Source: Flavobacteriales bacterium (GTDB taxonomy: Bacteria > Bacteroidota > Bacteroidia > JACJYZ01). Taken from it: a stretch of 40,590 nt of DNA. The number at the start of each line of letters is the position of its first letter. Position 1 is the stretch's first letter. The position numbers and the translations under genes are program-made. Of this stretch, positions 1-25,127 are shown piece after piece. The DNA is taken from NCBI GenBank assembly GCA_020435415.1, contig JAGQZQ010000022.1, positions 1 to 40,590 on the forward strand. The letters are read 5' to 3'. The notes under the pieces were generated by a model, which did no database searches, was not told where the DNA came from, and was given only the letters and a program-made list of their open reading frames with translations.

Positions 1-344
1 AATCCGTTATGAAATTTTCCCCGCTTGCCACCGAACTCGGTATATACTTGTTGTGTCTGTTCATTCCTGGCGAGGAACATATCCAGCAGTTCAGGTCTGA
101 CATGAGGCACAAGGGCAAGCATCAGAATGAATCGTTCCTCGAAGGAGAATTGATATTCCCTGACCAGCCGGTGGTATCCGGAATCTTCCGAACTCAGCGT
201 AGGAAGCGGGACTTCAAACACATCGGTGTACTTGCATTCTGCATTTGCGTTCAGCAGTGATCTGGTTTTAAGAACTTCACGGAACCACTGCAGTTCGGAT
301 TGCAGGTCGCGGGCATTGGATTTTATGGAGGTTGTTGTTACCAT
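1..344 (-). CDS. eCIS AAA+ ATPase (Pvc15-like), N-terminal fragment cut by window edge
   Basis: Only the first 114 codons are inside the window; the reading frame is open to base 1. The start ATG (342-344) overlaps the end of the tape-measure gene by 7 bases, a coupling typical of the Pvc14-Pvc15 pair. The visible part is helical and ends in a segment (FGGKRGKFHNG, after PHVRPELLDMF) that resembles the conserved N-terminal domain preceding the AAA+ module in eCIS ATPases. The Walker A and B motifs would lie outside the window. In the family this ATPase is essential for particle assembly, though it is not part of the mature particle. The assignment rests on this N-terminal resemblance and on position as last structural-assembly gene of the operon; it would be firm once the P-loop is seen. 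Confidence 0.8.
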   Translation of the reverse strand, partial: MVTTTSIKSNARDLQSELQWFREVLKTRSLLNANAECKYTDVFEVPLPTLSSEDSGYHRLVREYQFSFEERFILMLALVPHVRPELLDMFLARNEQTQQVYTEFGGKRGKFHNG

Positions 345-2095
345 TCTACGTGTATCATTGATTTGTTCCAGGGCATCATCACCAGGGAAATCCCCCAGGG
401 AAGGCGGTCCATCAGGATATCCACGGTTTGCCGCTCGACGTTAAGCTTCCATCCTCCCCCGAATCCTTCCCGTGACAGCAGTCCTTCGCGTTGAAGGAAG
501 GTTTGCTGAATAGATGCCGGTGATGCATTCTTCAGAACCGTCCATTGTTTCACCACATGCTCCAGCAATGCCTGGCTCTCGCTTTTTTCACTTTTGGTAA
601 GTCGGATTTTGGAAATAACGGGGGCCGAAGGTTCCATACCACACAGCAGTTTATTCAGGGTGAGTTCTTCTTCTCCCGCATTGCATCTTCCGTCTACGAG
701 GTATTGTAACAGGTGAACCGCACGCATTTGTTTGCTCTCGGATACAAACTGTTTATCCTTCACGAGGCCTAGTCCTTCGAAATAAAATGGTAAAAGCGAA
801 TGAAGGATCACCACACCGGCATTTTTCACGAATGCCTCTTCGACCTTTGGCAAGGGCCAGGCGTCTTCCTTCCTGCTTGATTTCTGATTCTGAAAATTCA
901 ACGGTGTTGATTTCCCGTCTGACGGTCGCAATTCCTCTTTTGATTGACCGTTCGGATGTTTTTCGTTCTTTGTGGAAACCGTATCGCTTTTCTTTACCTC
1001 TCGTTTACTTTCCTCTCCGGATTTGCGGTTGTTTTCTTTTACCGTGCTTATTTCCTTTTCATACGTTTTACCGGCTACCCTTACCTTATTGGTTTCACCT
1101 TTTTGCTCCCCATCTTTATCTTTTCTTTCGGGTTCAATCGGTTTCGAATCCGTTCCAGATCTTCCCGGAAGCTGTCCGATCATATCTTCCCAGGCAGACT
1201 CCAAAACAGGCGAGAGCGCATGGTTCTTCCGCCATGACTGATATGTCCGGCTGAGCTGTATCTCTCTGGCACTTGCTAAAGGATGGTTTATTTCCGCATG
1301 TCTTGTCGACGTCTGCTCATCCCAACCCGAGACCATAACCCGGATGAGTTGGGCAACAGAAGACACATCGGTTGATCTGGTGGTGATGGTCCAGTAAATA
1401 ATCGGTTGCCACTGCTTCCACCTTGTTGTTGAGCGATCGTCTCCACTTTGTGGTAGCCCGACTTTTGCGAGGGCATACAAGCCTGTGAGCAAATCCGTTT
1501 TTCCGGGAAGGATGGCTGCCAGCAGCTCGATCAGAGGTTTATCAGGGCATTGATATACCAGACGTTGTGCGCCGTGTGGAGATAACAGGCAGCGCCTGAG
1601 CACGCTGACGGTATCTTTGGGATGTTCGGTAATCAGGGTTTTGAGCCAAGTAGATAATGTTCCCCGGATCTCCCCGTAATGCTGACCGGTTTCGAGAAAG
1701 CGGATGATCGATTCCAGTTCGTGTACATGTGCTGATCTTCGTTCCGCATGTGGAACTTTTTCCGAAGCCTTTTCCGTCAGAAGTGGCGCGGATGGGTTGC
1801 GCGTTGTAGCGCCGGAAATGATATCAGGAAGTTTTGCGGCCAATGCCTCCTTCACCCTGGAAGGAAAATCTGCTTCCAGGCGATCCTTATCCAGGACACC
1901 AAGATCAATCTCTAATTTATCTATAACAAATACCTCCTCTTTTCCTCCATAGGAATCAAACAGCTTCTCCATCTCCAACAAAACCTTCTGGCGGTATATT
2001 CGACTTATGGTATTTTGCAGGACCTGGCCCTGATTTCCTGGTACGTTACATTGAAGTTCCAGTTTTTGTTTGGCAATGGAATGTTTGTTACCCAT
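338..2095 (-). CDS. contractile injection system tape measure protein (Pvc14-like, CIS_TMP family)
   Basis: A 585-aa protein with the two-part architecture of the eCIS tape-measure family. The N-terminus has the characteristic segment with a helix (LQNTISRIYRQKVLLEMEK) followed by FVIDKLEIDLGVLD (about residues 58-71). The C-terminal part has the family's NAGVVILHSLLPFYFEGLGL-like block (about 430-450) and ends in a WKLNVERQTVDILMDRLPW-type block. Between them, about residues 310-415, is a strongly charged, K/E/S-rich linker that looks disordered. The role known for the family is setting the length of the tube and sheath during assembly. It lies 25 bases after the 1353-aa protein and overlaps the ATPase gene by 7 bases. 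The linker would be the natural place for length variation between relatives; that is inference. Confidence 0.88.
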   Translation of the reverse strand: MGNKHSIAKQKLELQCNVPGNQGQVLQNTISRIYRQKVLLEMEKLFDSYGGKEEVFVIDKLEIDLGVLDKDRLEADFPSRVKEALAAKLPDIISGATTRNPSAPLLTEKASEKVPHAERRSAHVHELESIIRFLETGQHYGEIRGTLSTWLKTLITEHPKDTVSVLRRCLLSPHGAQRLVYQCPDKPLIELLAAILPGKTDLLTGLYALAKVGLPQSGDDRSTTRWKQWQPIIYWTITTRSTDVSSVAQLIRVMVSGWDEQTSTRHAEINHPLASAREIQLSRTYQSWRKNHALSPVLESAWEDMIGQLPGRSGTDSKPIEPERKDKDGEQKGETNKVRVAGKTYEKEISTVKENNRKSGEESKREVKKSDTVSTKNEKHPNGQSKEELRPSDGKSTPLNFQNQKSSRKEDAWPLPKVEEAFVKNAGVVILHSLLPFYFEGLGLVKDKQFVSESKQMRAVHLLQYLVDGRCNAGEEELTLNKLLCGMEPSAPVISKIRLTKSEKSESQALLEHVVKQWTVLKNASPASIQQTFLQREGLLSREGFGGGWKLNVERQTVDILMDRLPWGISLVMMPWNKSMIHVEW

Positions 2096-2120
2096 AGTAT
2101 GAATTCGGAGTTAGACAATA

Positions 2121-5100
2121 CTATTTTCTTTTAAACAGCGCATCCACCATATCGCTTCTATTCAAACTGGCGTCTACGCCCAGTTGCTCCGCTAACTTGA
2201 AAAGTGTTTCATCACTTAATGATGCTACCTCTTTTCTGGTCAGCGGTTGCGTTTTCAATCCTTCCTGTAGTTTTTTTGATAATGTTTCTCTTGTATCGGC
2301 CGTGGTCACTTTAAGCTGTCTGGACTCCATCAGGGCCGACAGTTCATTTCTGTTCAGGAATAAAAGATTATCCGTCAATGTTATTGTAGGTGTGGTCTCT
2401 CCCTGAATCTGGAAGTCCACGATCTGAGAAGAAGCCATGGCACCATCAAGGTCTACCGCCCTTCCCTGAAGTCTGTACGAACCGGCCTTGAGACCTTCCA
2501 TGACATACCCGAAATTCTGTTCCTTGGTGGTCACACCGTGGAGTTGTCCGTTCAACAGCACCTCCACTTTTGCCACGCCGGTATCGTCACCTGTGATGAA
2601 CACCACATCAATGGCAGAGCCAACCGGGAAGATCTGGTTTGTTTTCGGCTGTGCGATATTTACAAAGGGTGGTTCATTGCCACGAAGCAAACTGATATTC
2701 AGGAATGCCTGTGCAAACAATCCACTTGGATCGGTCACGCGTATTCCCAGTTGGAAGCCTTGTGAGTTGGGGAAGTTGGTGTTGCTGGCTACCACGATCT
2801 GTCCGGTGTTTGCAACAATGCGGAATGCATTGCCTGTATTTCCGGAAACGATACTGAAGGTGAGCGGATCTCCGTCAGGATCGCTGGCTTCCATGGTGGT
2901 CACCACTGTTCCTACCGCTATGGTCACAGGAATCTCAACACTTTGATTCCCGATGTTAGGGGCTTTGTTCTCATCAAACACCGTGATCACGACAAATGCT
3001 TCATCAAACAAGCCGAGAGGGTCTGTCACCCGAACACCCATTTCATATGGGATCGGCTCCATGGAATCCGGGTTGATGATCTGGATCTCTCCGGTTTGCG
3101 GATTGATGGCGAAGATATCCGTACGTCCTGTAAAGAATGAGAATGTCAGTGGTTCATTATCCGGATCGGATGCCTCCACAGTTCCAACGATGGTACCTTT
3201 AGGGCTATTCAGTGAGATAGAGAAATCCTGGTCAGGAATAAACGGCTCACCATTGCCTGTCGGGCGCAGGGTGATCTTTCCGCATCCGTCATTCTTATCA
3301 CCTTTCGCGGTGTACTTGAATGTATAAGGATCCTGGATGCTTTGGTTTACAAACATATGCAGTTCCACGCCACCGTTTTCAATGGATACGATTTCCTGAT
3401 TCACATCCGGATCATTGAACGTAAATCCTGGGTTATCCTTCAGGCTGGCCACCACATGGTCACCTTCTTTCACAGCAAATTCAAATGACGGGAGGCGAAC
3501 GCACATCTCACGAACAAGAACGGTGACGACCCCGGTATCTCTGAGCCCGTTATTGATGTTCTCCAAGGTATAGCTGTATTTTACAATGCCGGTGAAATCT
3601 TTGGGTGGGGTGAACAGCACACTGCGTTTGTCCTTGCTTATCTGCAATTGCGGTTGGTTATCATCAAGCGGCTTGACACCTACGATAAATACATTCCATG
3701 TCTCTTCCACTTCTTTGACGCAGAACTCTTTTTCCAGGTCATGAAGATTATGGTCGTTGATAACCAGCGGCATGGTGATGGATACATTCTCGAAAGTATA
3801 TCCGTAGTCAGGTCTTGCGTATGGCGCCACCATGATGTGTTCTTTCGCGATGGCATCATCGCAGACAGGAATGCAGCGGTGATCGTCACAGCATCGGTAA
3901 GGCAGGGAAAAGTCTGCCAGCACACGCTGGTTCATCCCCAGGAAATTGCCATAGACGATCACGAATGTTCCGCCGGATGGTGTACCGGCCATATGTTCTA
4001 TGCCGGGATGTTTGGCGATGTATTCACTGAACGTCTGACTATGTTTATTGAATTGAAGGGAGTAGTAATATTCCCTTCTTCTGAAAGCATAGTAAATTCT
4101 GTACAGGCGATTAAAGAACAGCATATCGAAGAACTGGTACACCACATGTGTAGCTTCTGCGATCACTTCCTGTGCAATATCGATACCAGTCACGTTATCC
4201 ACTTCCTGGGCACCTTCATCCACATCGTTCAGGTCAAGATGTTCGAACACCTTATCGGTCACAAAGACGATGGCATCTGCATAGCGATCTTTTAGCTCTT
4301 CGAATGATGCGGCGAAATCCGGAAGGCAGGGAGGCAATGTTTTACAGATGAATGTAACGATGCCTTTGTACACCTCTTCAATGATCTTCCTGACTTCGTC
4401 ATTGATTGGTTCTTCAAAATCCTTGTCGTTTTCCTTTGCGATCTCTTCGATCCTTTTGTAGAGATCCCAGACCGTGGGGCCGAACTTGAGCATGTTCACG
4501 ATCTGGTAGCGGCAGGAAATGTAGTCTTCGTGCAGGTCATGGAATCCGCAGTTGTAGTCTACGGGCATGTCTTCCAACGATGCAGGCACGACCGGGGCAG
4601 TCGCATTATTCACCCTTACCGCAACCACATCAAACGGGAGATTGTATTTGTGAATCTTTTCTTCCAGCAGGTCGATCACTTCGGCGCAGGATTTCCCGAG
4701 CCCACCTTCGATCCGGTAAAAACCGTAAGGGTCTCTGTTAAACTGAAGGGGCTTACTTACCTTGGTCTCTGTTGCCGGTCCGCCGGAGATATCATCATAG
4801 TTATTGGCATATGCCAGCAGTCCGTCACCAACGGCACATCTTCTTTTGATATCGTAGTCCCAAAGTGCTTCCAGGCTGCCAAACTTGCCATTGATCTTGG
4901 TTCTGAAATAGTATGGAATAGCCCGTTGGGTAAGCCAGGATTTTTTCTCATCGCTGGGTGTGACCTTTACTTTGAGCGGATCATAGCTTTCGGTCTTATT
5001 CACCCTGTCGGTATCAAATGCTTTAACCATTCGCTCCACCCGGTAAAACAGTGTTTGCGTTTCGAGCAACAACTTCCCGAAAGTCGCCTTGGCGGGGGAA

Positions 5101-6182
5101 TGCATGAATTGCTGACGGTAGGCTGACGGGATGCAGTCGGTGGTCACTTCACCAAGCATCAGGTGTTTCGGAAACTTCTTTTCATCGGGACAACATCTTG
5201 TAAGCAGGTCAAATGACACTTCTCTGAATTCACTGTAGGAAACAAAGAGGTCTTTGATAAAGTCATAGTAATACTGTATCCCCATATACTTCGGCGCGCT
5301 GCCACTGCCGTCGAAAATGGCTTTCCATGCATTGGCCATGGCGACGGGGTCAGCGAACGGATTGGCAGGAAGTGATTCCCTCAATATGGGTGCGAATGCT
5401 TCATAGGCGTCTTTCCAGGCGTTGAGTATGGCGAGAACGGGGTTCTGAGCTGCCGAAAAAAGTACGTTTCCGTAGGGTGCTGCAATCTTGGCGAACGTAT
5501 CGTAGTCTGCCACCGGTGGACTGAACAGCGGCAATTTCACACCAATATCCGGAAGGCGGTACCGGTCCGGGTATAGCATCACATCTTCATTCTCCGTACG
5601 CGGCAGTACCTTGTTTTCTATATCGGAAATAGAAATGAGCAACTTGCGCAGTGTGAATTTCCTTTCAATACCGATGTCGTCACAGCTTTTGGTGAGACAG
5701 GATTTCAGGTCTTTATCATAGCATTCGAGATAAAGAACCACCACCTTATTTTCGAAGATGGACTGATCAATTTGTACAATAGGTTCCTCACTTCCATCGG
5801 CTTCAAAATCATCCGTAAGCAGTTCCTGCATCACGATATCCTGCTGTTTGGTTGCAGGATTCTGAAACGGCGGATAGTCGATGTACGGATTCATCACATA
5901 ATTCCGGTAGGATGTGATAGGACATCCGCAGAATTGGATCAGAAAACCTTCCGAGGTGACGCCTACACCTTCTGAGATGTACAGCGTATCCACACCGAGG
6001 TCCGAATCGCTTTCGGGCACAAAACGGGTTTCCAGTCCGCACAGCACGCCGATACCGATCAGGCTGGACCGTGTGAGTCTTCCCTGCTCTTCCAGATAAG
6101 AAACCAGCTGGTTGAGCTGGGTGTTGGTCAGCACCTGGTTCTTTTCAAAAATGGGATAGGCATTATAGGTTGTAGAAGCCAT
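2121..6182 (-). CDS. giant eCIS-associated protein with cadherin-like and Ig-like repeats (Pvc13 position)
   Basis: A 1353-aa protein in the operon slot normally held by the Pvc13 tail fibre, but without any visible fibre-type (adenovirus-shaft) repeats. Residues 1-740 form a mixed helical region that starts with a segment (NQVLTNTQLNQLVSYL, then LIGIGVLCGLE) I believe recurs in Bacteroidota eCIS loci. A cysteine cluster CCDDHRCIPVC lies at 764-774. Two cadherin-like repeats follow (about 983-1070 and 1077-1166), each with an ASDPDxxPLTFS strand and a RVTDPxGLF strand, and then an Ig-like domain (about 1170-1260). The last 90 residues hold two short helical motifs resembling SAP or helix-extension-helix units (ending LAEQLGVDASLNRSDMVDAL). 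No signal peptide is visible, as expected for a particle component. It might be a surface-exposed adhesin or a shell around the baseplate; the function is inferred from position only. Confidence 0.75.
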   Translation of the reverse strand: MASTTYNAYPIFEKNQVLTNTQLNQLVSYLEEQGRLTRSSLIGIGVLCGLETRFVPESDSDLGVDTLYISEGVGVTSEGFLIQFCGCPITSYRNYVMNPYIDYPPFQNPATKQQDIVMQELLTDDFEADGSEEPIVQIDQSIFENKVVVLYLECYDKDLKSCLTKSCDDIGIERKFTLRKLLISISDIENKVLPRTENEDVMLYPDRYRLPDIGVKLPLFSPPVADYDTFAKIAAPYGNVLFSAAQNPVLAILNAWKDAYEAFAPILRESLPANPFADPVAMANAWKAIFDGSGSAPKYMGIQYYYDFIKDLFVSYSEFREVSFDLLTRCCPDEKKFPKHLMLGEVTTDCIPSAYRQQFMHSPAKATFGKLLLETQTLFYRVERMVKAFDTDRVNKTESYDPLKVKVTPSDEKKSWLTQRAIPYYFRTKINGKFGSLEALWDYDIKRRCAVGDGLLAYANNYDDISGGPATETKVSKPLQFNRDPYGFYRIEGGLGKSCAEVIDLLEEKIHKYNLPFDVVAVRVNNATAPVVPASLEDMPVDYNCGFHDLHEDYISCRYQIVNMLKFGPTVWDLYKRIEEIAKENDKDFEEPINDEVRKIIEEVYKGIVTFICKTLPPCLPDFAASFEELKDRYADAIVFVTDKVFEHLDLNDVDEGAQEVDNVTGIDIAQEVIAEATHVVYQFFDMLFFNRLYRIYYAFRRREYYYSLQFNKHSQTFSEYIAKHPGIEHMAGTPSGGTFVIVYGNFLGMNQRVLADFSLPYRCCDDHRCIPVCDDAIAKEHIMVAPYARPDYGYTFENVSITMPLVINDHNLHDLEKEFCVKEVEETWNVFIVGVKPLDDNQPQLQISKDKRSVLFTPPKDFTGIVKYSYTLENINNGLRDTGVVTVLVREMCVRLPSFEFAVKEGDHVVASLKDNPGFTFNDPDVNQEIVSIENGGVELHMFVNQSIQDPYTFKYTAKGDKNDGCGKITLRPTGNGEPFIPDQDFSISLNSPKGTIVGTVEASDPDNEPLTFSFFTGRTDIFAINPQTGEIQIINPDSMEPIPYEMGVRVTDPLGLFDEAFVVITVFDENKAPNIGNQSVEIPVTIAVGTVVTTMEASDPDGDPLTFSIVSGNTGNAFRIVANTGQIVVASNTNFPNSQGFQLGIRVTDPSGLFAQAFLNISLLRGNEPPFVNIAQPKTNQIFPVGSAIDVVFITGDDTGVAKVEVLLNGQLHGVTTKEQNFGYVMEGLKAGSYRLQGRAVDLDGAMASSQIVDFQIQGETTPTITLTDNLLFLNRNELSALMESRQLKVTTADTRETLSKKLQEGLKTQPLTRKEVASLSDETLFKLAEQLGVDASLNRSDMVDALFKRK

Positions 6183-6193: not shown

Positions 6194-9100
6194 TTAGGCA
6201 TTTCCTAGAATAGAATTGTTCAGTATGATTGAGTTCTCCGTGGTATTGTCTTCCTCACAATCGTGCAGGTGTCCCACGGGGTATACATTTCGTAATCTTG
6301 TCAGGATATCGATGAGGTTGCTGAGGGCGATGCTCAGCTGAACATGATCTCTGTCTTCCTTCGATATTTCGAGCAGCCAGCGTTTGTACATCTCCTCGAA
6401 TTCGGACATGTGTGCGTTGCTCACCCAGCAAATATTCAGGAAGATGTGAGCGGGTGCTTCCAGCCTGATCTTCCGTTCAAAGAATTTTCTGAAATCAGCG
6501 TTCCGGAACCGTCCTTGCCAGTAAGGCATAATCACCGAAGCGATATAGGTGTAGGGGTTCTCAAGCTGACAGTATATGCAGTCGGGATCCAGGTTTACGG
6601 GCAGCAGGCGATCCTGAACGAGGCTTTCGATGGATGCCAGGATGATGTGGGTGGAGCCGCCCTGTATCTCGGAAGATTCCACTTTGTACGTTCCATCGTT
6701 CCGTTGGTCCGTTGATCCTGTCAGATGCACAACCGTTTCTGCATCCACGGGTATTTCTCCGGCCACGATCACATCGCGGTTGGCGGTAATCACCGCCTGA
6801 ACAGGAGATGACACATGATAAGACACAATGCCCTGCGGTTCGGTTGTGGTTTCCGGAAAAGCCTGAACCACCTTGATCTCCGTCACATCGTCACCAACGT
6901 CATAGGTAGCAGTATTTACCGTATAGGTATCATCATTGGCATGTGTTCCGCTGACAGCCACCAGCAGGCCGGCATAGATCTCGGCTGTCCAGTCACCTTC
7001 TACGCGGAATATTTTAGAGGATTTCACGGAAGACTTGATATCCAGTTTCCGTTCGAAAAAGATCAGACCTTTATCTGCCAGCCCGCTGGCCAGTGTGTCC
7101 TCATCCGCAGGTACAAAATACCAGCCATTTACACGTGGTCTGAGCAACAGATGCTCTACAAGGTGAAAACCTTCATTGCTATAAAACTTTGTTTTGAAGA
7201 AGGCAACGGTATCGTTCACTGCCTTTGTATCCAGTCCACCGAGCACGGTCACTTTGTTTCCGGAAATCAGGTGTACAGGGAAGGATTTGGTGAATGACAG
7301 TGTACCATCGCTGTTGGTGGAAGCGAGTTCTTCCTTCACCTCAATGACAGTATCTCCGCTGACCAGACTCACCTTACGGATATTGAACAGCCCGTTGTTA
7401 AAGCCGGAACCCATGATGAGCACATCTGCCACATCGTGAAGGATCGGTGTGTAATCACCAGACAGAATAAACGCATTGCCGGGTTTATCGGCGGTAAATG
7501 ACAGGCTATCGGTATAGGCCAACTCACCATCAGAACCTGCGGCGGGCATGGGTGCGGTCATGGTCAGTTCCACATACGGACCATCCGCGGTGGCACCGGT
7601 AAATGTATAATCTCCGTTGTTGGTGTCAGCTCCGGTAATGCTCACCTGTTTTGTGGTGAGCGCATTGAATGCATCAGCGACCGGAATATTAAAATCGAAT
7701 GCCGTACTTCTGCCGAGTTCACCACCCAGTCTACTGGTCAGCACAAACTCATAAGGTGAGGTAAAAGGAGCTTCATCAGGAAGGAAACTATACTGGTCAG
7801 GATCATCACCGTTGGCGACTACGTCCCAGATAAAATCAACAGCTCTCTCCTGGGCCAGGTTCTCCATCTCCAACAGGGTCATACCTTCTTCTCCGTCGCC
7901 GGTTTGTTCGCCGGTCATGATCACATCTCCCGGATCTGTTGAATAGGCCTCGGAATGCAACTTATAGGAGATGGTATATTCCGGGATGGTGGGAACCATA
8001 TCCACGGCGATATCCACTTCAAAATAATTGTCTACCGGCGCCGCCAAATTATTGCGGTTGGATTCGGGGTTGAAGAAAATTTCATTAGCCAGGTCTGCAT
8101 GCAGTTGGGTGATCGCTTGCCCTGCAAGTTCTTCGGAAGCGTAGTTCACTTTCTTACTTATGGCGGAAAGTACCTCATTGCAATACAGTGCAAATGAAAA
8201 GGCGCCGGGTCCTTCTTCCTTAACCACAAAATTGGTGACATACTGGCCATGGGTGATCACGTCCTCAATGGCAAGTGCTGCTTCATCGGTAGTATCAAAG
8301 AGAATGCCGTCAGGCGACTGTAAAATGTAAGGCGCACTGCCAATCTCAAAACGGAACTGATCGCCGACGGCGATGATGTCAAAGGGTGCACTGAAAGAAA
8401 GATCGGAAGCCTTTCTTTCGTCCACACCCACCATGAGTGCGCCTCTTTTTTCGAGTCCGGACTTATTGTCGATATGCCAGATATGGCAGCGGTCCATATA
8501 ATTGAAAGCGGTTCCTCTTGCTGCGCTTATCTCGGGGTAGGCATTCAGGAAAGTAAGCTTGTCCTGGATCAGATCGCGGTCGGCATCGACACCTGCCAGG
8601 CGATAGGTCATCAGGGCGTAATCGGTAAACTGCTCGGAGAAGCGGGCCATCAGGTGATTGAGGAATTTGTTGCGCCGTTCAAAGAACAGGTGCTGATCCT
8701 CGGCCAGTTCGGCCAATGTTTCGGGGTGATGGTCCGGATCGGTGTACAGGCCGTCTGATTCGGGCACGATGTCTTTCAACACCTGCGTAAAATACGTTCT
8801 CCCGATGACGTAATTTCCGTCTTCATCTTTCTCCGCATTCATGGAGAAAAGATCTTTCACGTGTGCCAGCTGCGACATATAATTGGCCAGCAGCTGATCA
8901 AAAAACATAAGAAAGCCTTTCAGTTGTTTTACCTGGGCTTTTTGTTTAACCGGGGCACTGGCGGGCAGGCCTTCATCCCCGATACCGTATACCAGCGGAA
9001 AGTCTTCCTGAATGCTGGTGTATTCTTCCAATTGCAGATAATTGCCTCGTGGCACTTTCAGGTCAAGTACCGGGTTCTCTATTTTTTGTGATTGTTCTCC

Positions 9101-17624: not shown

Positions 17625-18104
17625 TTAGAACGGTAACAGATCCGTAGGATCGATGCGGCGGAAGTACTGGTAAGAGAACTCCACGGATTCGATCAGGATT
17701 TGTGCATCCTGCGCATTGAGATTGGCGATATCCCATTTCACCGGGTAGGCCTGAATAAAGTTCCAGGCTTGAAGCGGAATGTGATCGCCGTTCAACAATA
17801 CCACGGTGATATCAGCCGGTTCAAAGGTGAAATTCTCGGTGCTTTCCTTGAACCATTGCATGAGTTGAGAGCCGATGAGCAGGCCGCGTTTCATGACAAG
17901 ATTCTGGTAGCCCGCCGGCTGGGGAAGGCGATGTTTAAATCGGTTCTCGCCTCCCTCGTGATACTCTTCCGTAGCAATATCCACGTTGATACCGGACACT
18001 TCCTGAAAGCCAAGATCCGGAATACCCAGATACTTGGGATTGGTGAGCAGTCCTTCGAACCGCACCAGAAAATGAAACCCTACAGGTGGATTGAACAATG
18101 GCAT
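17625..18104 (-). CDS. eCIS tail tube protein, second copy (Pvc5-like, gp19 family)
   Basis: A 159-aa phage tube/gp19-family protein. Diagnostic segments are PPVGFHFLVRF at the N-terminus, LGFQEVSGINVDI, a long strand/loop EYHEGGENRFKHRLP, and a final ESVEFSYQYFRR strand. It differs strongly from the other tube protein encoded upstream (144 aa), with an extra loop GLLTNPKYLGIPD near residues 18-30, as expected if it forms the specialised tube-initiating ring near the baseplate rather than the bulk tube. Which of the two is the bulk tube is inferred from length and position only. Confidence 0.9.
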   Translation of the reverse strand: MPLFNPPVGFHFLVRFEGLLTNPKYLGIPDLGFQEVSGINVDIATEEYHEGGENRFKHRLPQPAGYQNLVMKRGLLIGSQLMQWFKESTENFTFEPADITVVLLNGDHIPLQAWNFIQAYPVKWDIANLNAQDAQILIESVEFSYQYFRRIDPTDLLPF

Positions 18105-18125: not shown

Positions 18126-18560
18126 TTATGCAAACTCGATGGACAGTCCTTCGTGTTGAAGCTCGATGGATTCCACGGCAACTTCGTTACCGGTAGAGTT
18201 CAGGCTCGGACCTTCCACTTTCGAGGGCCATGCATCCTTTACCTTCCAGGTTACGATAGGCGCATGCTCTTCATTCAGCAGACTGATGGTAAGATCGCGT
18301 CTTTCGATGCTGTTCAGCTTAACGGTATTCAACCATTGGAAGAACTCATTGTCGCCCTGAAAAATTCCACGCTTCAAAGTGATGGCGGAAAACTTCGGGA
18401 TACCGGGCATTTTGGTTACCTGATATTCCAGCGAAGATCCTTCCCTGTAGTCGATAGACTGCAGTTCAATAGAAAGGCCCGATACTTCGGTAAAGCCAAT
18501 ACGTTGTCCACCCCATTCTACCTGAAAATGAAAAGCGGTTACTGGATAATTGATTGCCAT
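18126..18560 (-). CDS. eCIS inner tube protein (Pvc1-like, gp19 family)
   Basis: A 144-aa tube protein with the standard fold markers: YPVTAFHFQVEWGG at the start, GFTEVSGLSIELQSIDYREG, a TLKRGIFQGDNEFFQWL helix and the final VESIELQHEGL strand. Hexamers of this family stack into the rigid tube that the sheath drives through the target envelope. It is short and lacks insertions, which fits the bulk tube. The gene starts 39 bases after the last sheath gene and is followed after 21 bases by the second tube gene. The sheath-then-tube order is typical of eCIS, although canonical PVC places this tube gene ahead of the sheaths. Confidence 0.92.
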   Translation of the reverse strand: MAINYPVTAFHFQVEWGGQRIGFTEVSGLSIELQSIDYREGSSLEYQVTKMPGIPKFSAITLKRGIFQGDNEFFQWLNTVKLNSIERRDLTISLLNEEHAPIVTWKVKDAWPSKVEGPSLNSTGNEVAVESIELQHEGLSIEFA

Positions 18561-18599: not shown

Positions 18600-20018
18600 T
18601 TATGATTGCTGTAATTTGTGTGAGAATTTCAGGATGATGAATTCTGCGGGTCTGACAGCGGCCAGTCCGATTTCAATGTTCATTCTTCCTTCCAGGATAT
18701 CCTGAGCAGACATGGTCACACCCAACCCTACTTTCACAAAAAATGCCTGATCTGTCTTGGCTCCGGCCAATGCACCATCCCTCCAAAGTTTGGTCAGGAA
18801 ATTCTCGATCATGGTTTTAACCCGCAGCCAGGTGTTGGCGTCGTTGGGTTCAAACACGGAAAACTCTGTGGCTTTCTTCACCGATTCCTCTACAAAAATG
18901 AAGAGACGGCGAACCGGTACATAGCGCCACTCATTATCGTTTCCGGCCAGGGTTCTTGCGCCCCACACCAGGGTTCCTTTTCCGGGGAAAGCGCGCAATG
19001 CGTTGATCGACTTCCCGGAAGTCGCATCGATATTGAGGCTTTCCTGTTGCTCGCGTGTGATCTTGATAGTAGGTCCGACGATGGAAAATACACCAACGTT
19101 TGCCGGGGCCTTCCATACGCCGCGGTCATTGTCTACCCGGGCATAGATACCCGCCATAGCCGGTGACGGTGGCAATGTCACAAGCAATGTCGTCAGCTTG
19201 GCGATGATGCTGCGATACACATCGGGGTTTGACGCTTTGATGGCCGCAATGGTATCACCATCCAATGCACCGGGGTTGGCCGGATTGATTTCATTATGCG
19301 ATACGGTCAACAGGCTTTCATCATAACCATATGCCAGTGTTGTTTTGATATAAGGATAGTAGGCAGCACCGTACTTCAGGTTGTCAGAGCTTACGCCTGA
19401 ACTTCTGAAGGCGGTGGCATCTGCGAAGGCGTCGCCCGTCTCACCTTTATAGTCCATGATCACAAAGCGGTCTTTCAGTTTCTGGCATTGGGCCAGCGCT
19501 TCGTCGTAGACATCCTTGTAATTGGCCACGGTAGAATGGTCCGGGAATACCAGCAAGGTCGGTTCATCGATCTTCTCGATATCGGCCACACCATTCATCA
19601 ACTTGGACTTTGCAACGTTGGCTGTGGATCCCGAGTAATCACCTACCGATACGATGTAACACGGACCGCCACCATTAGCGAAGAAATGTTGCAGCGCATA
19701 GTACATCTTGAATGCACTCGCGCTTCCGATGGCAACGGATATGGTTCGGCTCACCACTTCGGCGCCGCCGTCCATATCGTCTTCTATGCCAACCGTGATG
19801 GCGGCATGTTCGGAAAACGGACCGCCGAAATACTGCTCGTACTCCAGCATATTGGTGATTCGTGTGGGAACGCGATCGAGTGCACCGCCCACGCCATTCT
19901 TATCCGCGATCTCTGTGCATCCTATGAATGCGGGTATCGCCGTTTCTACCGCCGCAACCGAGGGAGGCAGCGTGCTGACCTCTTCGATGTAGACTCCGGG
20001 GGTTTTGGGAAAAGCCAT
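18600..20018 (-). CDS. eCIS sheath protein, third paralogue
   Basis: A 472-aa sheath protein. The N-terminal block (KTPGVYIEEVSTLPPSVAAV) and the C-terminal 150 residues (from GKSINALRAFPGKGTL through NEWRYVPVRRLFIFVEES to AAVRPAEFIILKF) are the conserved sheath handshake regions. The middle domain (about 80-280) is unlike the two other paralogues, and this is the only copy with the GAAYYPYIKTTLAYGY variant. In PVC/AFP three sheath genes are also present; one forms most of the sheath and the others form specialised rings near baseplate or cap. Assignment to one of those roles cannot be made from sequence alone. Confidence 0.93.
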   Translation of the reverse strand: MAFPKTPGVYIEEVSTLPPSVAAVETAIPAFIGCTEIADKNGVGGALDRVPTRITNMLEYEQYFGGPFSEHAAITVGIEDDMDGGAEVVSRTISVAIGSASAFKMYYALQHFFANGGGPCYIVSVGDYSGSTANVAKSKLMNGVADIEKIDEPTLLVFPDHSTVANYKDVYDEALAQCQKLKDRFVIMDYKGETGDAFADATAFRSSGVSSDNLKYGAAYYPYIKTTLAYGYDESLLTVSHNEINPANPGALDGDTIAAIKASNPDVYRSIIAKLTTLLVTLPPSPAMAGIYARVDNDRGVWKAPANVGVFSIVGPTIKITREQQESLNIDATSGKSINALRAFPGKGTLVWGARTLAGNDNEWRYVPVRRLFIFVEESVKKATEFSVFEPNDANTWLRVKTMIENFLTKLWRDGALAGAKTDQAFFVKVGLGVTMSAQDILEGRMNIEIGLAAVRPAEFIILKFSHKLQQS

Positions 20019-20056: not shown

Positions 20057-21493
20057 TTAGGATTCCTGAAGTTTATGAGAGAATTTCAGGATGATAAATT
20101 CTGCAGGACGAACAGCGGCCATGCCGATCTCTACATTCATCCGCCCTTCCAAAATATCCAGGGGTGTCATGGTTTCTCCAAGGCCTACTTTTACAAAAAA
20201 GGCCTGTTCGGGTTTGGCACCCGCAAGGGCACCTTCACGCCAGAGTTTTACCAGGAAGTTCTCGATCATGCCCTTTACGCGCTGCCAGGTACCGGCCGTA
20301 TTGGGCTCGAATACCACGAACTCGGTCGCCTTTTTGACAGACTCTTCCACGAAAATGAACAACCTGCGAACAGGCACATAGCGCCATTCGTTGTCGTTCC
20401 CTGCCAGGGTACGTGATCCCCATACCAGCACGCCTTTTCCACTGAAGGTGCGAATGGCATTGATGGACTTTCCGGAAACCGCATTCACATTCAGGTTTTC
20501 CTGCTCTTCCGCTGAAATATTGAGGAGAGGTTCTGCTACACTGCGTACGCTTACGTTAGCAGGTGCTTTCCACACCCCACGCTCACGGTCTACCCGGGCG
20601 TATATTCCGGCAACGGATGATCCGGGAGACAGGATCACCTTTGCCTGGCGATTGATCTCACCCTTGATCTGGTAGTAAACCGCCAGGTTGGTGTTGGCAC
20701 CTTCACTGCTGAGGTCATCCAGACCCAGACCGTCAAAAGCGCCGGCAGGATTGGTGTCACCATCGTCGGTGGTATGGGTGATGGTGACGTCCGCATCAAC
20801 ATAAGGAACCACAATGGATGAACGGAGGTACGGATGGTATACCGCACCATACTTCAGGTCGTCGATCCCTAAGGTTGTTGATGCGTCTACCGTATCTGAA
20901 TCGCTGTTGTGTGTATCGATGATGGTGAATCTGTCTTGCAGAGATGCACATTGTGCCAGCATTTTCTGCGCGAGTTCATAGTGATCATCGGCGTTAAGTC
21001 CATCAGCGGTCTCAGGCATCAGAAGCAATGTGGGCTCATCCACTTTCTTAATGGCATCCAGGCCATCTTCAAAATCATCCTTGCTGAAGGCCGCCACAGG
21101 AAACGTGTGGGGATTCGGGTTTACCGAAACGATATAACACGGACCGCCGCCGTTGGCAAAGTACATCTGCACGGCATGATAAAGGTTGTGTTCAGACGGA
21201 TCCGCCTGGGCTACCGTTATGGTACGGCTGATGAGATCGCCGGCCGGGCCGGTCAGTTTATCATGAACGGTCACATCCAGTTCTTCAGATTCGGGTCCAC
21301 CGAAGATCTCTTCAAATTCAGGAAAGGAAGTGATGCGCACGGGGACGTTAGGTCCCAGCGTGACGCTGTCTTTCCTGCGTTTCTCCGTATAGCCTATAAA
21401 TGCCGGGATCGCTGTGGCAACGGCCGCAACAGATGCAGGGAGTTTGGATATCTCCTGAATATAAACACCAGGGGTTTTGATCACTGTAGCCAT
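20057..21493 (-). CDS. eCIS sheath protein, second paralogue
   Basis: A 478-aa sheath protein with the same N-terminal (KTPGVYIQEISKLPASVAAV) and C-terminal blocks as its neighbours. The C-terminal core (GKSINAIRTFSGKGVLVWGS, then NEWRYVPVRRLFIFVEES, and AAVRPAEFIILKFSHKL) is almost identical to the flanking copies, while residues 60-300 differ, including an acidic loop with DADVTITHTTDDGDTNPAGA. The pattern fits an old tandem duplication with strong constraint, or gene conversion, on the part that interlocks sheath subunits and free divergence of the outer domain. It is separated by 38 bases from the next copy and 33 from the previous one. Confidence 0.93.
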   Translation of the reverse strand: MATVIKTPGVYIQEISKLPASVAAVATAIPAFIGYTEKRRKDSVTLGPNVPVRITSFPEFEEIFGGPESEELDVTVHDKLTGPAGDLISRTITVAQADPSEHNLYHAVQMYFANGGGPCYIVSVNPNPHTFPVAAFSKDDFEDGLDAIKKVDEPTLLLMPETADGLNADDHYELAQKMLAQCASLQDRFTIIDTHNSDSDTVDASTTLGIDDLKYGAVYHPYLRSSIVVPYVDADVTITHTTDDGDTNPAGAFDGLGLDDLSSEGANTNLAVYYQIKGEINRQAKVILSPGSSVAGIYARVDRERGVWKAPANVSVRSVAEPLLNISAEEQENLNVNAVSGKSINAIRTFSGKGVLVWGSRTLAGNDNEWRYVPVRRLFIFVEESVKKATEFVVFEPNTAGTWQRVKGMIENFLVKLWREGALAGAKPEQAFFVKVGLGETMTPLDILEGRMNVEIGMAAVRPAEFIILKFSHKLQES

Positions 21494-21526: not shown

Positions 21527-22993
21527 TTAGGATTCCTGCAGCTTATGAGAGAACTTCAGGATGATAAATTCGGCGGGGCGAACGGCGGCAAGACCTATCT
21601 CCACGTTCATACGTCCTTCAAGGATATCCAATGCGGTCATGGTTTCACCCAGACCTACTTTCACAAAGAAGGCATCTTCGGGTTTGGCACCTGCCAGGGC
21701 ACCTTCACGCCATAGTTTCACGAGGAAGTTCTCGATCATGCCTTTTACCCTGAGCCAGGTGTTGGCATCATTGGGTTCAAAGACCACGAACTCTGTTGCC
21801 TTTTTGGTGGATTCTTCAACAAAAATGTAGAAGCGGCGAACGGGAACATATCGCCATTCATTGTCATTCCCTGCCAGGGTGCGCGCACCCCAGATCAGGA
21901 TTCCTTTACCTGCAAAATTGCGGATAGCGTTGATTGATTTACCGCTGTTGGCATCCACGTTCAGGTCTTCCTGTTCTTCACTTGAAACAAGTGCAACGGG
22001 AGCTTTTACAGAACGCAGGCTGACATTTGCAGGAGCTTTCCAGACTCCGCGGTCACGATCGACGCGGGCATAAGTTCCGGCAATAGCGCTGCATGGATAT
22101 AATTTCACTTTGATCTTCCGGATCTCATTGATCAGTTTGGCGTATGCATCGGTGGCTGTTTCTTTGATATCGGCCAGGCTGTCCTGATTGGCAGGTGCTG
22201 CATCCAGGGTGATCACTGCATCATCAAAATCTTCGGCAGCCGCGTATGCTCCGTTCACCGTGCGATTCACTTTCAGAGCGGATTCATCGTAGGCGAAATT
22301 AATGGTGGTTTCCAGCTGAGGGTAGTACGCGGCACCATACTTCAGGTAGGTACTTCCTACATAATCATCGCGAAAATCATCGCCATCCTCTTTCACAGTT
22401 TGTGCGCTATCGGTAACCACATCCATGATCACAAACCGATCCTGGAGTTTGTTGCATTGCGCGAGGGCGGCATCGTATAATTCTTTGGCATCCGCAGGAT
22501 CCAATGTATTTGCCTCGGGGATGGTGATGAGTGTGATCTCATCTTCCATCTCACATTTCTGGAGCCCTTCCAGAAGAGCTGCCTTGGCGGGAGAACCTGC
22601 TGCCGTGCCTCCCACGGATACGATATAACATGGGCCGCCTCCATTGTTGAAATACATCTGAATGTAATAGTACATTTTGTAATCACTTTCAGATGGCAGG
22701 GTCACCTCATACTCCCGGCTTTGAAGCAGCCAGGTACCCGGGTTGTCGGCATCTTCTTCTGTTGTATCCTTAACCCTCAGGGTAAAGGTTTCGTTCTTCG
22801 CAACGCCGAACCATTGCTCATATTCAAGGAGCGACGTGATGCGTGTAGGCACATCGGTGATGTCTTCTCCATTGCGGGTGGCGTCGGCAGTATAGCCTAT
22901 GAAGACGGGGATAGCCGTGGCTACCGGTGCAATTGAAGCCGGCAGGGTGGATATCTCCTCCACATAAACACCGGGGGTTTTGTATTCAGGCAT
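21527..22993 (-). CDS. eCIS sheath protein, first paralogue
   Basis: A 488-aa sheath protein, the longest of three. Conserved ends are KTPGVYVEEISTLPASIAPV at the N-terminus and the shared C-terminal core with NEWRYVPVRRFYIFVEES and ALDILEGRMNVEIGLAAVRP. The middle region includes an aromatic/acidic stretch (TFTLRVKDTTEEDADNPGTW) and an insertion near 255-290 not seen in the third copy. The glycine-rich FNNGGGPCYIVSVGG segment is present in all three with small changes. As the first sheath gene behind the cap and discoidin genes it may be the main sheath protein; that is a guess from order. Confidence 0.93.
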   Translation of the reverse strand: MPEYKTPGVYVEEISTLPASIAPVATAIPVFIGYTADATRNGEDITDVPTRITSLLEYEQWFGVAKNETFTLRVKDTTEEDADNPGTWLLQSREYEVTLPSESDYKMYYYIQMYFNNGGGPCYIVSVGGTAAGSPAKAALLEGLQKCEMEDEITLITIPEANTLDPADAKELYDAALAQCNKLQDRFVIMDVVTDSAQTVKEDGDDFRDDYVGSTYLKYGAAYYPQLETTINFAYDESALKVNRTVNGAYAAAEDFDDAVITLDAAPANQDSLADIKETATDAYAKLINEIRKIKVKLYPCSAIAGTYARVDRDRGVWKAPANVSLRSVKAPVALVSSEEQEDLNVDANSGKSINAIRNFAGKGILIWGARTLAGNDNEWRYVPVRRFYIFVEESTKKATEFVVFEPNDANTWLRVKGMIENFLVKLWREGALAGAKPEDAFFVKVGLGETMTALDILEGRMNVEIGLAAVRPAEFIILKFSHKLQES

Positions 22994-23010: not shown

Positions 23011-24522
23011 TTATACAAATACATACATCTTGGATTCAACGATATGGTTTCCCGGTACGGCGGGATTGTTCAAATGCGATATGATCACGGGATCAGACGC
23101 GCTGGTATTCTTGAGTGCCAGTCCTGTTTTGGGCGACTGGAACAAGGGTATGGGTTGTTTTGAATTAAAGGTGATGGCATTCCTTCCGGCCCACTCCGTA
23201 CTGGATTCATCCAACGGCCCCTTCACAAATTCGTAAGTGGCATAAGGATTTCCCGTATCACCGCTGTCATCTTCAATGACCAGATCAGCGTCTGTGAAAT
23301 CGATCTGACCTGACTTGTCTATAATGGTGAATGTCCAGTAGGTGGCCTTCTGGTCAAACTGTAGTGCGTAATATTCCTGGTCGCCAAACAGGTGGGCATC
23401 AGCTCCCGGGTATGCAATCTCCACGATTCCCAGTGGTGCGGTACCTGCCAGTTCGGGATGATAGTAGAGTCGTTTCGTGGCAAGGGTCTGCGACTCATCC
23501 GTTGTTTTCACAGTAAAGATGTAAAGGCCTGAAGGTCTGCTTCCCAATCTCACGGGATGTCCGGACACCCCATCATCATCTGGGATGATGGTTGCGGTAT
23601 TGTCGTCCGGTCCGGTTAATTTGAAAACCTCTCCTGTTGGGCCCGTCACTTCCACGATCGTATCCACCGGGGTTTCGAGTGCATATACAAAGTTGAAGGC
23701 GGCCGGCACGATCCTGTCGATCAGATCTTGTGCGATGATCTCCGCGTTATTGGGATCTGATGAGGCGGATGCGGGTACATTTTTAAAATACGCCACTTTG
23801 CCCGAGGTATATTCGGTCACTTCGTAGCTGGCATTTGCGAACACGGAAAGTTCTTTGATACCATACCCTTTTCCATTGTTGCTTTCCTCACATTGAATTC
23901 TCACGTACCGGCCGGTTGCAGCCAATCCGGAGACATTGATATTGTTGCCGTTGCTTCCTTCAAACCTGGATATGGCAATCCATTGACCGGGCTGGTGTGC
24001 AACCTGGATCTCAAAAGTCTCCGCACGTTTTTGCCATTTGATATCAATTTCAGTGATGCGGAATAACTGTCCAAGATCTACGATGATGAATTGATCATCA
24101 TTCTCCTCGCTTTGCCATGAAGTGGCGTTGGAGCCGTCTACTGCGTTTTCACCTCCACTGGAACCATCCTTGACGGACGACACTGTCACATCCTTATTCT
24201 CTGCCTGATTCACCGATGGATTAACAGCCGTTTCCGTGATCACATCCAGGTCTGTAAAACTTTGAAACACCTGGGGGCTGGAATGATCAAGGCTGAACAC
24301 GAGGGTCTGATCTCCCGATATCCCGATCACCGGATCACTGCCGGAGGTGATGTATTCATATAGCATCACATAACCGGATTCCAGTCTTCGCCATATCCAG
24401 CGACCATTTCGCATCAGGAGCGAAGTATTTCCATCAGGTTTCAGATAGAGGTCACGTCCCTTCCCATCATGATAATACGGATGATTGAAATCTACCTGAA
24501 ATAATGGAGTGTATGCAGCCAT
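23011..24522 (-). CDS. eCIS-associated protein with discoidin (F5/8 type C) domain
   Basis: A 503-aa protein starting at the ATG two bases past the cap gene's stop (a GGGGGG run just upstream can serve as ribosome binding site). The start (MAAYTPLFQVDFNHPYYHDG) and the region beyond residue 240 (YFKNVPASASSDPNN onwards) are beta-rich and not known to me by function. Residues about 108-229 form an F5/8 type C domain: ENAVDGSNATSWQSE, then FIIVDLGQLFRITEIDIKW and a final GRYVRIQCEES segment, the classic jelly-roll that binds sugars or lipids. No signal peptide is visible, so it probably acts on the particle rather than by ordinary secretion. It could mediate target or host binding, or hold the cap end; both are inference. 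Confidence 0.75.
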   Translation of the reverse strand: MAAYTPLFQVDFNHPYYHDGKGRDLYLKPDGNTSLLMRNGRWIWRRLESGYVMLYEYITSGSDPVIGISGDQTLVFSLDHSSPQVFQSFTDLDVITETAVNPSVNQAENKDVTVSSVKDGSSGGENAVDGSNATSWQSEENDDQFIIVDLGQLFRITEIDIKWQKRAETFEIQVAHQPGQWIAISRFEGSNGNNINVSGLAATGRYVRIQCEESNNGKGYGIKELSVFANASYEVTEYTSGKVAYFKNVPASASSDPNNAEIIAQDLIDRIVPAAFNFVYALETPVDTIVEVTGPTGEVFKLTGPDDNTATIIPDDDGVSGHPVRLGSRPSGLYIFTVKTTDESQTLATKRLYYHPELAGTAPLGIVEIAYPGADAHLFGDQEYYALQFDQKATYWTFTIIDKSGQIDFTDADLVIEDDSGDTGNPYATYEFVKGPLDESSTEWAGRNAITFNSKQPIPLFQSPKTGLALKNTSASDPVIISHLNNPAVPGNHIVESKMYVFV

Positions 24523-24524
24523 GA

Positions 24525-25127
24525 TTACCCCCCGATCAGATTTAGATTGTTTTCCAGGATCGGTGGACCCTGTTCTTTGACCGCTGCTTCCTGGAATCTT
24601 ACCACCCGGATTTTGTACAGCACAGAAGGGAGGTACTTCGCGCCGATAACGGTCCAAAGGTTGTCCTGTTGTTCGAAGCCGTAATAGTACAGTTCGACAA
24701 TCAGCTTTTCCAGTTCACCCATGGCTGCCATGGCCGGTGTATTGGCGGGCGTGAACACATGTTTCTGCTGGAAAAAAGAGATGATGTAGGAAAGCTGCTT
24801 GAGCCCTTCCGTATATTTTGTACTGGTGGCGTCGGTATCTCCGTTTGGGAAATTGGCCGTTACCAAAGCGTATAAATTAAACCGGAGTTCCGGATTGTAG
24901 AAAGATATTTTCCCGTCAGGATTTTTGTGCGCAGAATTTTGTTCCTTCAGCATTCTCTCCTCTTCCACCTTCACAAGGGACATGCCCAGCTTGTCTTCCG
25001 GAATAGCCCAGCTTCCACTCTCGGTAGCTACGTTGGACAGTACGATCTTATCTTCAACCGTTCCGTTCTTCAAATTCAGATAGCTATTGGCTTCACCTCT
25101 GAGCAGTATGAGGGCCTTATCAATCAT
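24525..25127 (-). CDS. DUF4255 / Pvc16-like eCIS cap protein
   Basis: A 200-aa protein of the Pvc16 N-terminal domain family (DUF4255). Markers are IDKALILLRGEANSYL at the start, KISFYNPELRFNLYALVTAN in the middle, the GLKQLSYIISFFQQKHVF helix, and a C-terminal LPSVLYKIRVVRFQE strand. In PVC and AFP the homologue caps the distal end of the sheath and tube. Here it is the first gene of the operon, whereas Pvc16 is last in the PVC order. The start follows a leader with an AGGAG sequence about 15 bases upstream, and a promoter candidate at 25158-25189. Confidence 0.9.
   Translation of the reverse strand: MIDKALILLRGEANSYLNLKNGTVEDKIVLSNVATESGSWAIPEDKLGMSLVKVEEERMLKEQNSAHKNPDGKISFYNPELRFNLYALVTANFPNGDTDATSTKYTEGLKQLSYIISFFQQKHVFTPANTPAMAAMGELEKLIVELYYYGFEQQDNLWTVIGAKYLPSVLYKIRVVRFQEAAVKEQGPPILENNLNLIGG

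What the first reader, a model, noticed from the sequence alone, without database searches (positions are those of the whole stretch)
1..25127. Compact Bacteroidota-type eCIS operon with the cap gene first
Sixteen same-strand genes with small gaps or overlaps cover the conserved eCIS set from cap to ATPase, with no capsid, portal, terminase or integrase gene. The order differs from PVC/AFP: the Pvc16-like gene leads, PAAR precedes gp25, and a discoidin protein stands between cap and sheaths. Payload genes are not in the window and should be looked for to the left, past the ATPase.
Basis: partly seen in the sequence, partly recalled or inferred. Interest (0 to 1): 0.75.

Follow-up and report, generated by a model that had tools for sequence, protein, structure and literature searches.

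The report
Injection-particle operon with discoidin-bearing cap
This is a complete gene set for a phage-tail-like protein syringe of a well-known type; its one unusual part is a probable sugar-binding domain inserted into the protein that should close the rear, non-injecting end of the particle.

Summary
The window is one whole contig whose left edge splits the ATPase gene. The other half, with an AAA+ domain, ends contig C97 of the same assembly, followed by two eCIS_core (DUF4157) payload genes and further candidates, so both predictions about what lies to the left are met. Cap-first order and PAAR-before-gp25 are not distinctive: 60 of 61 scorable named loci run cap, adaptor, sheath.

The unusual feature is the "discoidin protein". 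By profile (All3326 E 1.5e-23; AlgoCIS cap adaptor E 3.4e-20) and fold (Z 17.6, 12.6) it is the cap adaptor (Alg16B/Cis16B family), with an in-frame insert of about 140 aa holding a discoidin/CBM32-like domain. None of the other adaptors scanned has one. In AlgoCIS the adaptor closes the non-injecting end and is shed on firing. I propose that discoidin domains ring the rear end as a glycan-binding, break-away tether. Anatomy is shown; function is inferred.

The parts
24525..25127 (-). Cap protein (Alg16A/Cis16A-like, Pvc16_N), 200 aa
   Evidence: PF14065 E 1.1e-32; AlgoCIS cap 7adz_0A E 3.2e-15, All3327 E 1.1e-14
23011..24522 (-). Cap adaptor (Alg16B/Cis16B family), 503 aa, with inserted discoidin domain
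   Evidence: profile A1 hits All3326 E 1.5e-23, AlgoCIS cap adaptor E 3.4e-20, SalCis16b E 2.3e-18; model Z 17.6 to 7b5i_AB and 12.6 to 7adz_1A
23833..24213 (-). Discoidin/CBM32-like domain inserted in the cap adaptor (about residues 104-230 of 503; the whole insert is about 140 aa)
   Evidence: PF00754 E 3.7e-16; absent as one block from 7 aligned relatives and 23 named relatives; Z 11.7 to CBM32 4zxe/4zz5
21527..22993 (-). Sheath 1, 488 aa
   Evidence: PF17482 E 1.7e-12
20057..21493 (-). Sheath 2, 478 aa
   Evidence: PF17482 E 8.1e-12; 56% identical to sheath 1
18600..20018 (-). Sheath 3, 472 aa
   Evidence: PF17482 E 5.6e-13; 57% identical to sheath 1
18126..18560 (-). Inner tube (Afp1-like), 144 aa
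   Evidence: PF06841 E 7.4e-48
17625..18104 (-). Second tube protein / probable tube initiator (Afp5-like), 159 aa
   Evidence: PF06841 E 1.9e-36
17430..17603 (-).
   Evidence: PF19265 DUF5908 E 3.3e-11; same place in 7 of 7 relatives; the link DUF5908 = Alg6 is recalled
16705..17430 (-). Afp7-like CIS_tube + LysM, 241 aa
   Evidence: PF19266 E 3e-44
14948..16702 (-). Afp8-like hub/spike (VgrG-like), 584 aa
   Evidence: PF04717 E 2.7e-23
14575..14853 (-). PAAR tip, 92 aa
   Evidence: PF05488 E 3e-18
14126..14563 (-). gp25 / Afp9-like sheath initiator, 145 aa
   Evidence: PF04965 E 8.1e-24
10664..14116 (-). Afp11-like baseplate J, 1150 aa
   Evidence: PF04865 E 4.7e-6
6194..10612 (-). Afp12-like baseplate, 1472 aa
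   Evidence: All3315 E 4.2e-145, Algo12 E 2.3e-111
2121..6182 (-). Probable tail fibre (N-terminus like All3314/Cis19 and the AlgoCIS fibre; cadherin/Big domains near the C-terminus), 1353 aa
   Evidence: All3314 E 5e-52, 9wt0_a E 1.2e-44; PF00028 E 2.8e-15
338..2095 (-). Tape measure (CIS_TMP), 585 aa
   Evidence: PF19268 E 1.8e-108
3..344 (-). N-terminal 114 aa of the eCIS ATPase, cut by the contig end; the rest is on contig C97 (L045:11097-12110 -)
   Evidence: matches residues 5-110 of the G040 ATPase; the C97 part matches 111-443 and holds PF00004

Best explanation
A complete clade-Ib eCIS operon runs from cap to ATPase, followed on the next contig by a payload module. Its cap adaptor carries an inserted discoidin (CBM32-like) domain. 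Working model: tube and sheaths assemble on the baseplate and spike, the cap (Pvc16-like) closes the tube, and the adaptor joins the cap to the last sheath ring, as Alg16B does. If the adaptor forms a hexamer like its relatives, six discoidin domains stand at the non-injecting end, while the cadherin-type fibres at the baseplate find the target. The discoidin ring binds glycans of the matrix, of the producer or of neighbouring particles, and so holds or clusters particles. Because the AlgoCIS adaptor is shed when the sheath contracts, this tether would break away on firing. Shown here: gene content, order, adaptor membership, the inserted domain, and the ATPase and payload genes on C97. Inferred: assembly, hexamer, glycan binding, tether, payload role. 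My odds: anatomy 0.95; adaptor with a true insertion 0.93; glycan binding 0.6; rear tether 0.4. The confidence below is for anatomy and adaptor insertion together.
For: Gene content. Same core order in seven relatives. Cap-adaptor-sheath order in 60 of 61 named loci holding all three. Adaptor membership by profile; by fold: Z 17.6 (299 residues, rmsd 5.4) to Anabaena All3326 and Z 12.6 (215 residues, rmsd 3.3) to the AlgoCIS adaptor. Relatives lack the discoidin block as one gap. Discoidin by Pfam E 3.7e-16; nearest folds for that region are CBM32 modules. Of 17 proteins in fetched loci that match this discoidin domain I scanned seven: three GH3, one GH26, one GDSL hydrolase, two other discoidin proteins. 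ATPase halves. Payload. Alg16B role and release on firing: PMC8894135 section 8, PMC13314943 passages.
Against: No particle, binding or expression data exist. The ligand site was not tested; glycan binding rests on fold and neighbours only, and other discoidin domains bind lipids or proteins (recalled). The window protein alone finds only discoidin proteins in the PDB, not adaptors, and one short relative alone (G372) finds nothing: adaptor membership by sequence needs the profile. The model is weak at the start of the insert (pLDDT under 50 over residues 102-113, 115-131, 135-141). Foldseek's ranks 2 and 3 are unrelated proteins and rmsd is high throughout. Whether the insert points outward was not tested. 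The discoidin adaptor was found in one draft genome only. C22 and C97 share no overlapping end bases, so their adjacency rests on protein homology.
Confidence: 0.85

Rival explanations
1. The operon is an ordinary clade-Ib eCIS, and the discoidin insert is a neutral or structural decoration (a spacer or brace) with no ligand.
For: Adaptor size varies (186 to 456 aa among the named calls apart from fused L093 and over-long L149), so the family tolerates extra blocks; no second discoidin adaptor was found.
Against: The insert keeps a discoidin signature at E 3.7e-16 and an open frame; of seven matching proteins scanned, five are glycoside or ester hydrolases.
Confidence: 0.3
2. The system is a cell-bound CIS rather than a released one, and the inserted domain helps to anchor it in or on the producing cell.
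For: The best solved match of the Afp12-like and fibre proteins is the thylakoid-anchored Anabaena CIS, found in the cell pellet and hardly in the supernatant (PMC8894136 passages).
Against: Anabaena is anchored through baseplate and fibre extensions, not through the cap. I ran no test for transmembrane segments or lipid anchors here.
Confidence: 0.12
3. The locus is a prophage tail or R-type tailocin, not an eCIS.
For: Contractile phage tails share the sheath, tube, gp25 and baseplate J families.
Against: No head, portal, terminase or lysis family was hit among the ORFs scanned in the window and C97; Pvc16, CIS_TMP, CIS_tube, an eCIS-type ATPase and eCIS_core payloads are present; a pattern scan of the viral contigs with the tube alignment gave one relative, 45% identical.
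Confidence: 0.02
4. The discoidin block is an assembly chimera.
For: Single draft genome in 194 contigs; no second discoidin adaptor found.
Against: The frame is open on both sides, the gap falls between conserved motifs, and GC and GC3 of the block (0.467, 0.496) are close to the N core (0.473, 0.480), less so to the C core (0.503, 0.549).
Confidence: 0.04

Closest known systems
AlgoCIS of Algoriphagus machipongonensis (clade Ib eCIS, PMC8894135)
   Same: Separate cap and cap adaptor; homologues of its cap, adaptor, Alg12 and fibre found by sequence. A plug is described there; a DUF5908 gene stands here.
   Different: Its adaptor has 284 aa and no discoidin in the profile alignment; one sheath protein, Alg2, makes its solved sheath, against three sheath genes here; its Alg12 has 933 aa against 1472 here.
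Anabaena thylakoid CIS (all3313-all3327, PMC8894136)
   Same: Operon all3327-all3315 starts with the cap gene; two-protein cap Cis16A/Cis16B; best solved match for Afp12-like, fibre and adaptor.
   Different: All3326 has 399 aa and no insert at the discoidin place in the alignment; that system is membrane-anchored through baseplate and fibre parts.
AFP and PVC (clade Ia eCIS)
   Same: Homologues of Afp12/Pvc12 found by sequence; a Pvc16 N-domain.
CBM32 / F5_F8 type C discoidin modules (e.g. Paenibacillus IK-5 chitosanase modules 4zxe, 4zz5)
   Same: Z 11.7 over 104-105 residues, 20-25% identity; phmmer E 1.6e-10 for 4zxe.
   Different: Those modules come from enzymes; this one sits inside a particle-closing protein, and its ligand is unknown.

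Membership tests
eCIS (extracellular contractile injection system) | Sheath, tube, spike/PAAR, gp25 and baseplate J genes in one operon | tested here: met
   Pfam hits, same strand, gaps -7 to 94
eCIS (extracellular contractile injection system) | Pvc16-type cap and AAA+ ATPase | tested here: met
   PF14065; ATPase split between C22 and C97, PF00004 E 1.8e-29
[quoted passage not shown]
   two eCIS_core proteins just past the ATPase on C97, the only two matches in this draft genome
eCIS (extracellular contractile injection system) | No head genes | tested here: met
   none hit among the ORFs scanned in the window and C97; the region beyond the far end of C97 was not seen
eCIS (extracellular contractile injection system) | Released, freely diffusing particle | not testable with these tools
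   needs culture and microscopy; known here only as an unnamed draft genome
Clade Ib CIS (AlgoCIS type) | Separate cap adaptor between cap and distal sheath | tested here: met
   profile and fold matches to Alg16B and All3326
Clade Ib CIS (AlgoCIS type) | Plug protein (Alg6) | tested here: inconclusive
   17430-17603 is DUF5908 (E 3.3e-11) at the expected place; that DUF5908 is the Alg6 family is recalled, and no comparison with Alg6 was run
Clade Ib CIS (AlgoCIS type) | Spike cage formed by an Alg11 extension | not tested
   the extension of the 1150-aa Afp11-like protein was not compared
Clade Ib CIS (AlgoCIS type) | Sheath phylogeny within clade Ib | not tested
   no tree was built; placement rests on best matches and shared parts
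Cap adaptor family (Alg16B/Cis16B) | Sequence homology over N- and C-terminal parts | tested here: met
   direct matches to discoidin-free adaptors on both sides of the insert in G247, G264 and G075
Cap adaptor family (Alg16B/Cis16B) | Gene between cap and sheath | tested here: met
   window order; 60 of 61 named loci holding all three
Cap adaptor family (Alg16B/Cis16B) | C6 ring joining cap to sheath | not testable with these tools
   needs cryo-EM
CBM32 / discoidin carbohydrate-binding module | Discoidin fold | tested here: met
   PF00754 E 3.7e-16; Z 11.7 to 4zxe
CBM32 / discoidin carbohydrate-binding module | Demonstrated sugar binding or conserved binding residues | not tested
   binding residues were not compared; ligand unknown

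The most novel reading that the evidence does not exclude
The rear end of an injection particle is a functional binding surface: discoidin domains on the cap adaptor, six if it forms a hexamer, hold the particle by its tail to a glycan matrix, to the producer or to other particles, and the hold is broken by firing itself, because contraction expels the adaptor. Loaded particles would then be displayed as fixed traps instead of being lost by diffusion.
Probability: 0.3. Interest if true: 0.75.

Novelty: new variant of a known kind. Interest (0 to 1): 0.45.

Why it matters
In AlgoCIS, attachment is assigned to the tail fibres, and a role is proposed for the spike cage; both are at the injecting end (PMC13314943 passages; PMC8894135 passages). 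A ligand-binding domain built into the part that closes the opposite end would mean that particles can be held, clustered or sorted by their tail. It would also show that the cap adaptor accepts a folded insert, which names a place where such particles vary in nature. If ordinary, the locus is still a complete operon with its payload genes, recovered across a contig break.

Tried and rejected
Cap-first order as a distinctive feature: rejected. Three sheath genes: also in relative G020; none of the 80 named loci showed more than two in the stretch held, but many of those stretches are cut, so I claim nothing from it.

A second discoidin adaptor was sought and not found: genome-contig scan with the protein (16 pattern matches, none confirmed); viral contigs (4 pattern matches, none confirmed); 395 phylum genomes with the protein (52 with any match, own included, mostly discoidin-only matches in longer proteins; seven other genomes gave adaptor-type matches, none across the discoidin block); Pfam on 64 of 64 adaptor calls from the 80 named loci. 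With the adaptor profile, 43 of 395 class genomes and 48 of 395 phylum genomes matched (own genome included in both, sets overlap). I did not scan all of these for discoidin. Apart from the window's frame and some weak partial matches in frames of 558-1317 aa (judged unrelated from partial coverage, not examined), listed frames reach at most 454 aa. I read ten adaptors from longer-frame genomes and scanned six of those plus three others (nine proteins, no discoidin). 16 of the 80 named loci gave no adaptor call; eight of them hold both cap and sheath. L093 is an adaptor running in frame into a sheath, and L149 has an over-long start.

Blocks in some other adaptors (L121, L098, L161, L164, L168, L169, L170, L051) struck me from memory as CBM5/12-like; Pfam at E up to 10 supported it in none of the eight. 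It remains a lead only.

The discoidin was not predicted on its own, and one of two prediction jobs stayed unused. Parts of the model outside residues 105-236 are barely tested against other folds (note). Foldseek's rank 1 was All3326 (E 1.3e-15), rank 4 the AlgoCIS adaptor (E 1.7e-6), with unrelated proteins at ranks 2 and 3 and high rmsd. No sigma-70-type promoter above chance in 24400-27200 (1 found, 4.0 expected).

Literature: 'contractile injection system' with 'discoidin' gave one paper, on pyocin fibres (listing only); with 'cap adaptor' two; 'contractile injection' with 'carbohydrate-binding module' eight (listing), of which I searched AlgoCIS for the term: its modules are in the Alg11 spike cage. 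'discoidin' and 'F5_F8' do not occur in the main text of the eCIS receptor-domain catalogue PMC12923769. 'SalCIS' gave none. A discoidin on the cap is not in print as far as these searches show; the library lacks most subscription papers.
Full report
What is there. The window is the complete contig C22 (40590 bases) of an unnamed draft genome of 3.48 Mb in 194 contigs. Sixteen minus-strand ORFs from 25127 to 3 were confirmed, and a seventeenth, 17430-17603, was added: 57 aa, DUF5908 at E 3.3e-11, with a counterpart between the second tube gene and the Afp7-like gene in 7 of 7 relatives looked at. Gaps run from -7 to 94 bases. Families are in the parts list. The genome gave one CIS_TMP match and one Pvc16 match, so one system. 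Among 60 genomes in that relatives search (own included), 6 had a CIS_TMP match, 5 over the family's cut-off.

The left edge. The cut 114-aa ORF matches the start of relatives' ATPases. Searching the genome for AAA gave 17 places; one lies near the end of contig C97, in a frame that runs off that contig. Against three relatives' ATPases the C22 half and the C97 half match residues 5-110 and 111-443 (G040), 1-110 and 111-446 (G030), 4-98 and 107-443 (G001). In two of three the halves abut without a missing residue. The contig ends share no overlapping bases. The C97 half carries PF00004 at E 1.8e-29, and I read a P-loop (GPPGTGKT) in its translation.

Payload. Past the ATPase on C97 (L045), same strand, lie: a 601-aa eCIS_core protein with a peptidoglycan-binding match (E 2.5e-5); a 112-aa protein with a weak NTF2-type immunity match (E 0.003, under its cut-off); a 742-aa eCIS_core protein with an M35 metallopeptidase match (E 2.9e-11); a 247-aa protein with an RHS-repeat match (E 1e-6); a 303-aa protein without a secure family; a 236-aa protein with an M35 match under its cut-off (E 6.1e-5); and a 1398-aa protein with a C-terminal AHH nuclease match (E 7.8e-13). 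The two eCIS_core proteins are the only ones found in the genome. PMC8213781 (passages) reports this domain as strongly associated with eCIS toxins, which tend to lie at the 3' end of operons, and a Bacteroidetes toxin of predicted peptidyl-Lys metalloendopeptidase function that was antibacterial and did not kill yeast. An antibacterial role is a fair guess here; it is not tested.

Gene order. In seven relatives, chosen because they hold a discoidin-free adaptor, the order cap, adaptor, sheath(s), tubes, Afp7, Afp8, PAAR, gp25, Afp11, Afp12, fibre, tape measure, ATPase is the same, except that no fibre was matched in G372 and no ATPase N-terminus in G140. Of 80 named loci fetched with the tube alignment (564 confirmed, best 80 kept), 69 hold cap and sheath, 68 with the cap first; 61 hold cap, adaptor and sheath, 60 in that order. 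The Anabaena operon all3327-all3315 also starts with its cap gene (PMC8894136 passages). So the order is that of the group.

The cap adaptor. Searching 395 phylum genomes with the discoidin protein gave seven other genomes whose proteins match its N-terminal part (within 17-143), its C-terminal part (282-547) or both, none across the discoidin; all seven lie between cap and sheath. Aligned, the discoidin stands as one block between the motif ending in FTDL and the motif YFxN, and the same holds against 23 named relatives. The profile of these eight proteins hits three PDB sequences at E up to 10: All3326 of the Anabaena cap (E 1.5e-23), the AlgoCIS cap adaptor (E 3.4e-20) and SalCis16b (E 2.3e-18). 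Single sequences do not reach that far: the window protein alone finds six discoidin-type chains, the short G372 adaptor none. The predicted model (mean pLDDT 80.5, pTM 0.77) gives Z 17.6 to All3326 over 299 residues and Z 12.6 to the AlgoCIS adaptor over 215; the discoidin region matches chitosan-binding CBM32 modules best, at Z 11.7. The model is weakest at the start of the insert.

How rare. Pfam found no discoidin in 64 of 64 adaptor calls from the named loci. Adaptor profile matches occur in 43 of 395 class genomes and 48 of 395 phylum genomes, own included and sets overlapping; nine of the larger adaptors were scanned without a discoidin hit. The rest were not scanned one by one.

What it may do. 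In AlgoCIS a hexamer of Alg16B joins the cap to the last sheath ring; without it particles are aberrant and empty (PMC8894135 section 8). On contraction Alg16B no longer fits and is lost; the authors conclude that it locks the pre-firing state (PMC13314943 passages). If this adaptor does the same, its discoidin domains decorate the end opposite to the fibres. Of 17 proteins in fetched loci that match this discoidin I scanned seven: three GH3, one GH26, one GDSL hydrolase, one with a lectin-like Laminin_G_3 domain, one with two discoidins and a sorting domain. With the CBM32 folds this points to glycan binding. I favour a tether that firing breaks; a plain structural insert is the main rival.

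Origin. Among the closest tubes in named loci are those of Algoriphagus aestuarii (84%) and Fodinibius roseus (82%). I did not determine the organism; 'Bacteroidota-type' agrees with these matches. GC and GC3 of the discoidin block do not stand out from the N-terminal core.

Verdict. The discoidin cap adaptor makes it a new variant.

Noticed in passing
window 25389-26864 (-): 491-aa protein with weak TPR matches directly upstream of the cap gene; a similar protein lies upstream of the cap in nine of 80 named loci (eight Algoriphagus/Aquiflexum, and L092 at some distance) and in G247. A regulator of the operon is possible.
   Followed up: partly
window 6194-10612 (-): The Afp12-like protein has 1472 aa, as in G247 (1429) and G264 (1656), against 869-1208 in the nine other relatives mapped and 933 in AlgoCIS. 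The nature of the extension was not worked out.
   Followed up: no
window 35297-40590 (-): A SiaC-family protein, a DUF6272 protein, a 268-aa protein without a family and a large sensor with propeller repeats and a SpoIIE phosphatase domain lie together, which resembles a SiaABC-type partner-switching cassette (name recalled).
   Followed up: no
window 32044-35154 (+): 1036-aa single protein combining TerB, ABC ATPase and ABC-2 membrane domains.
   Followed up: no
L121, L098, L161, L164, L168, L169, L170, L051 (adaptors): Other long cap adaptors carry extra blocks after the YFxN motif that look module-like; Pfam gives no carbohydrate-binding family. Extra blocks in cap adaptors may be recurrent.
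   Followed up: partly
L091, L094, L095, L112, L116, L120, L128, L132; G020: Loci with cap and sheath but no adaptor gene recognised by the profile.
   Followed up: no
L045:130-4326 (-): 1398-aa C97 protein with an AHH nuclease domain at its C-terminus, at the end of the payload cluster.
   Followed up: no
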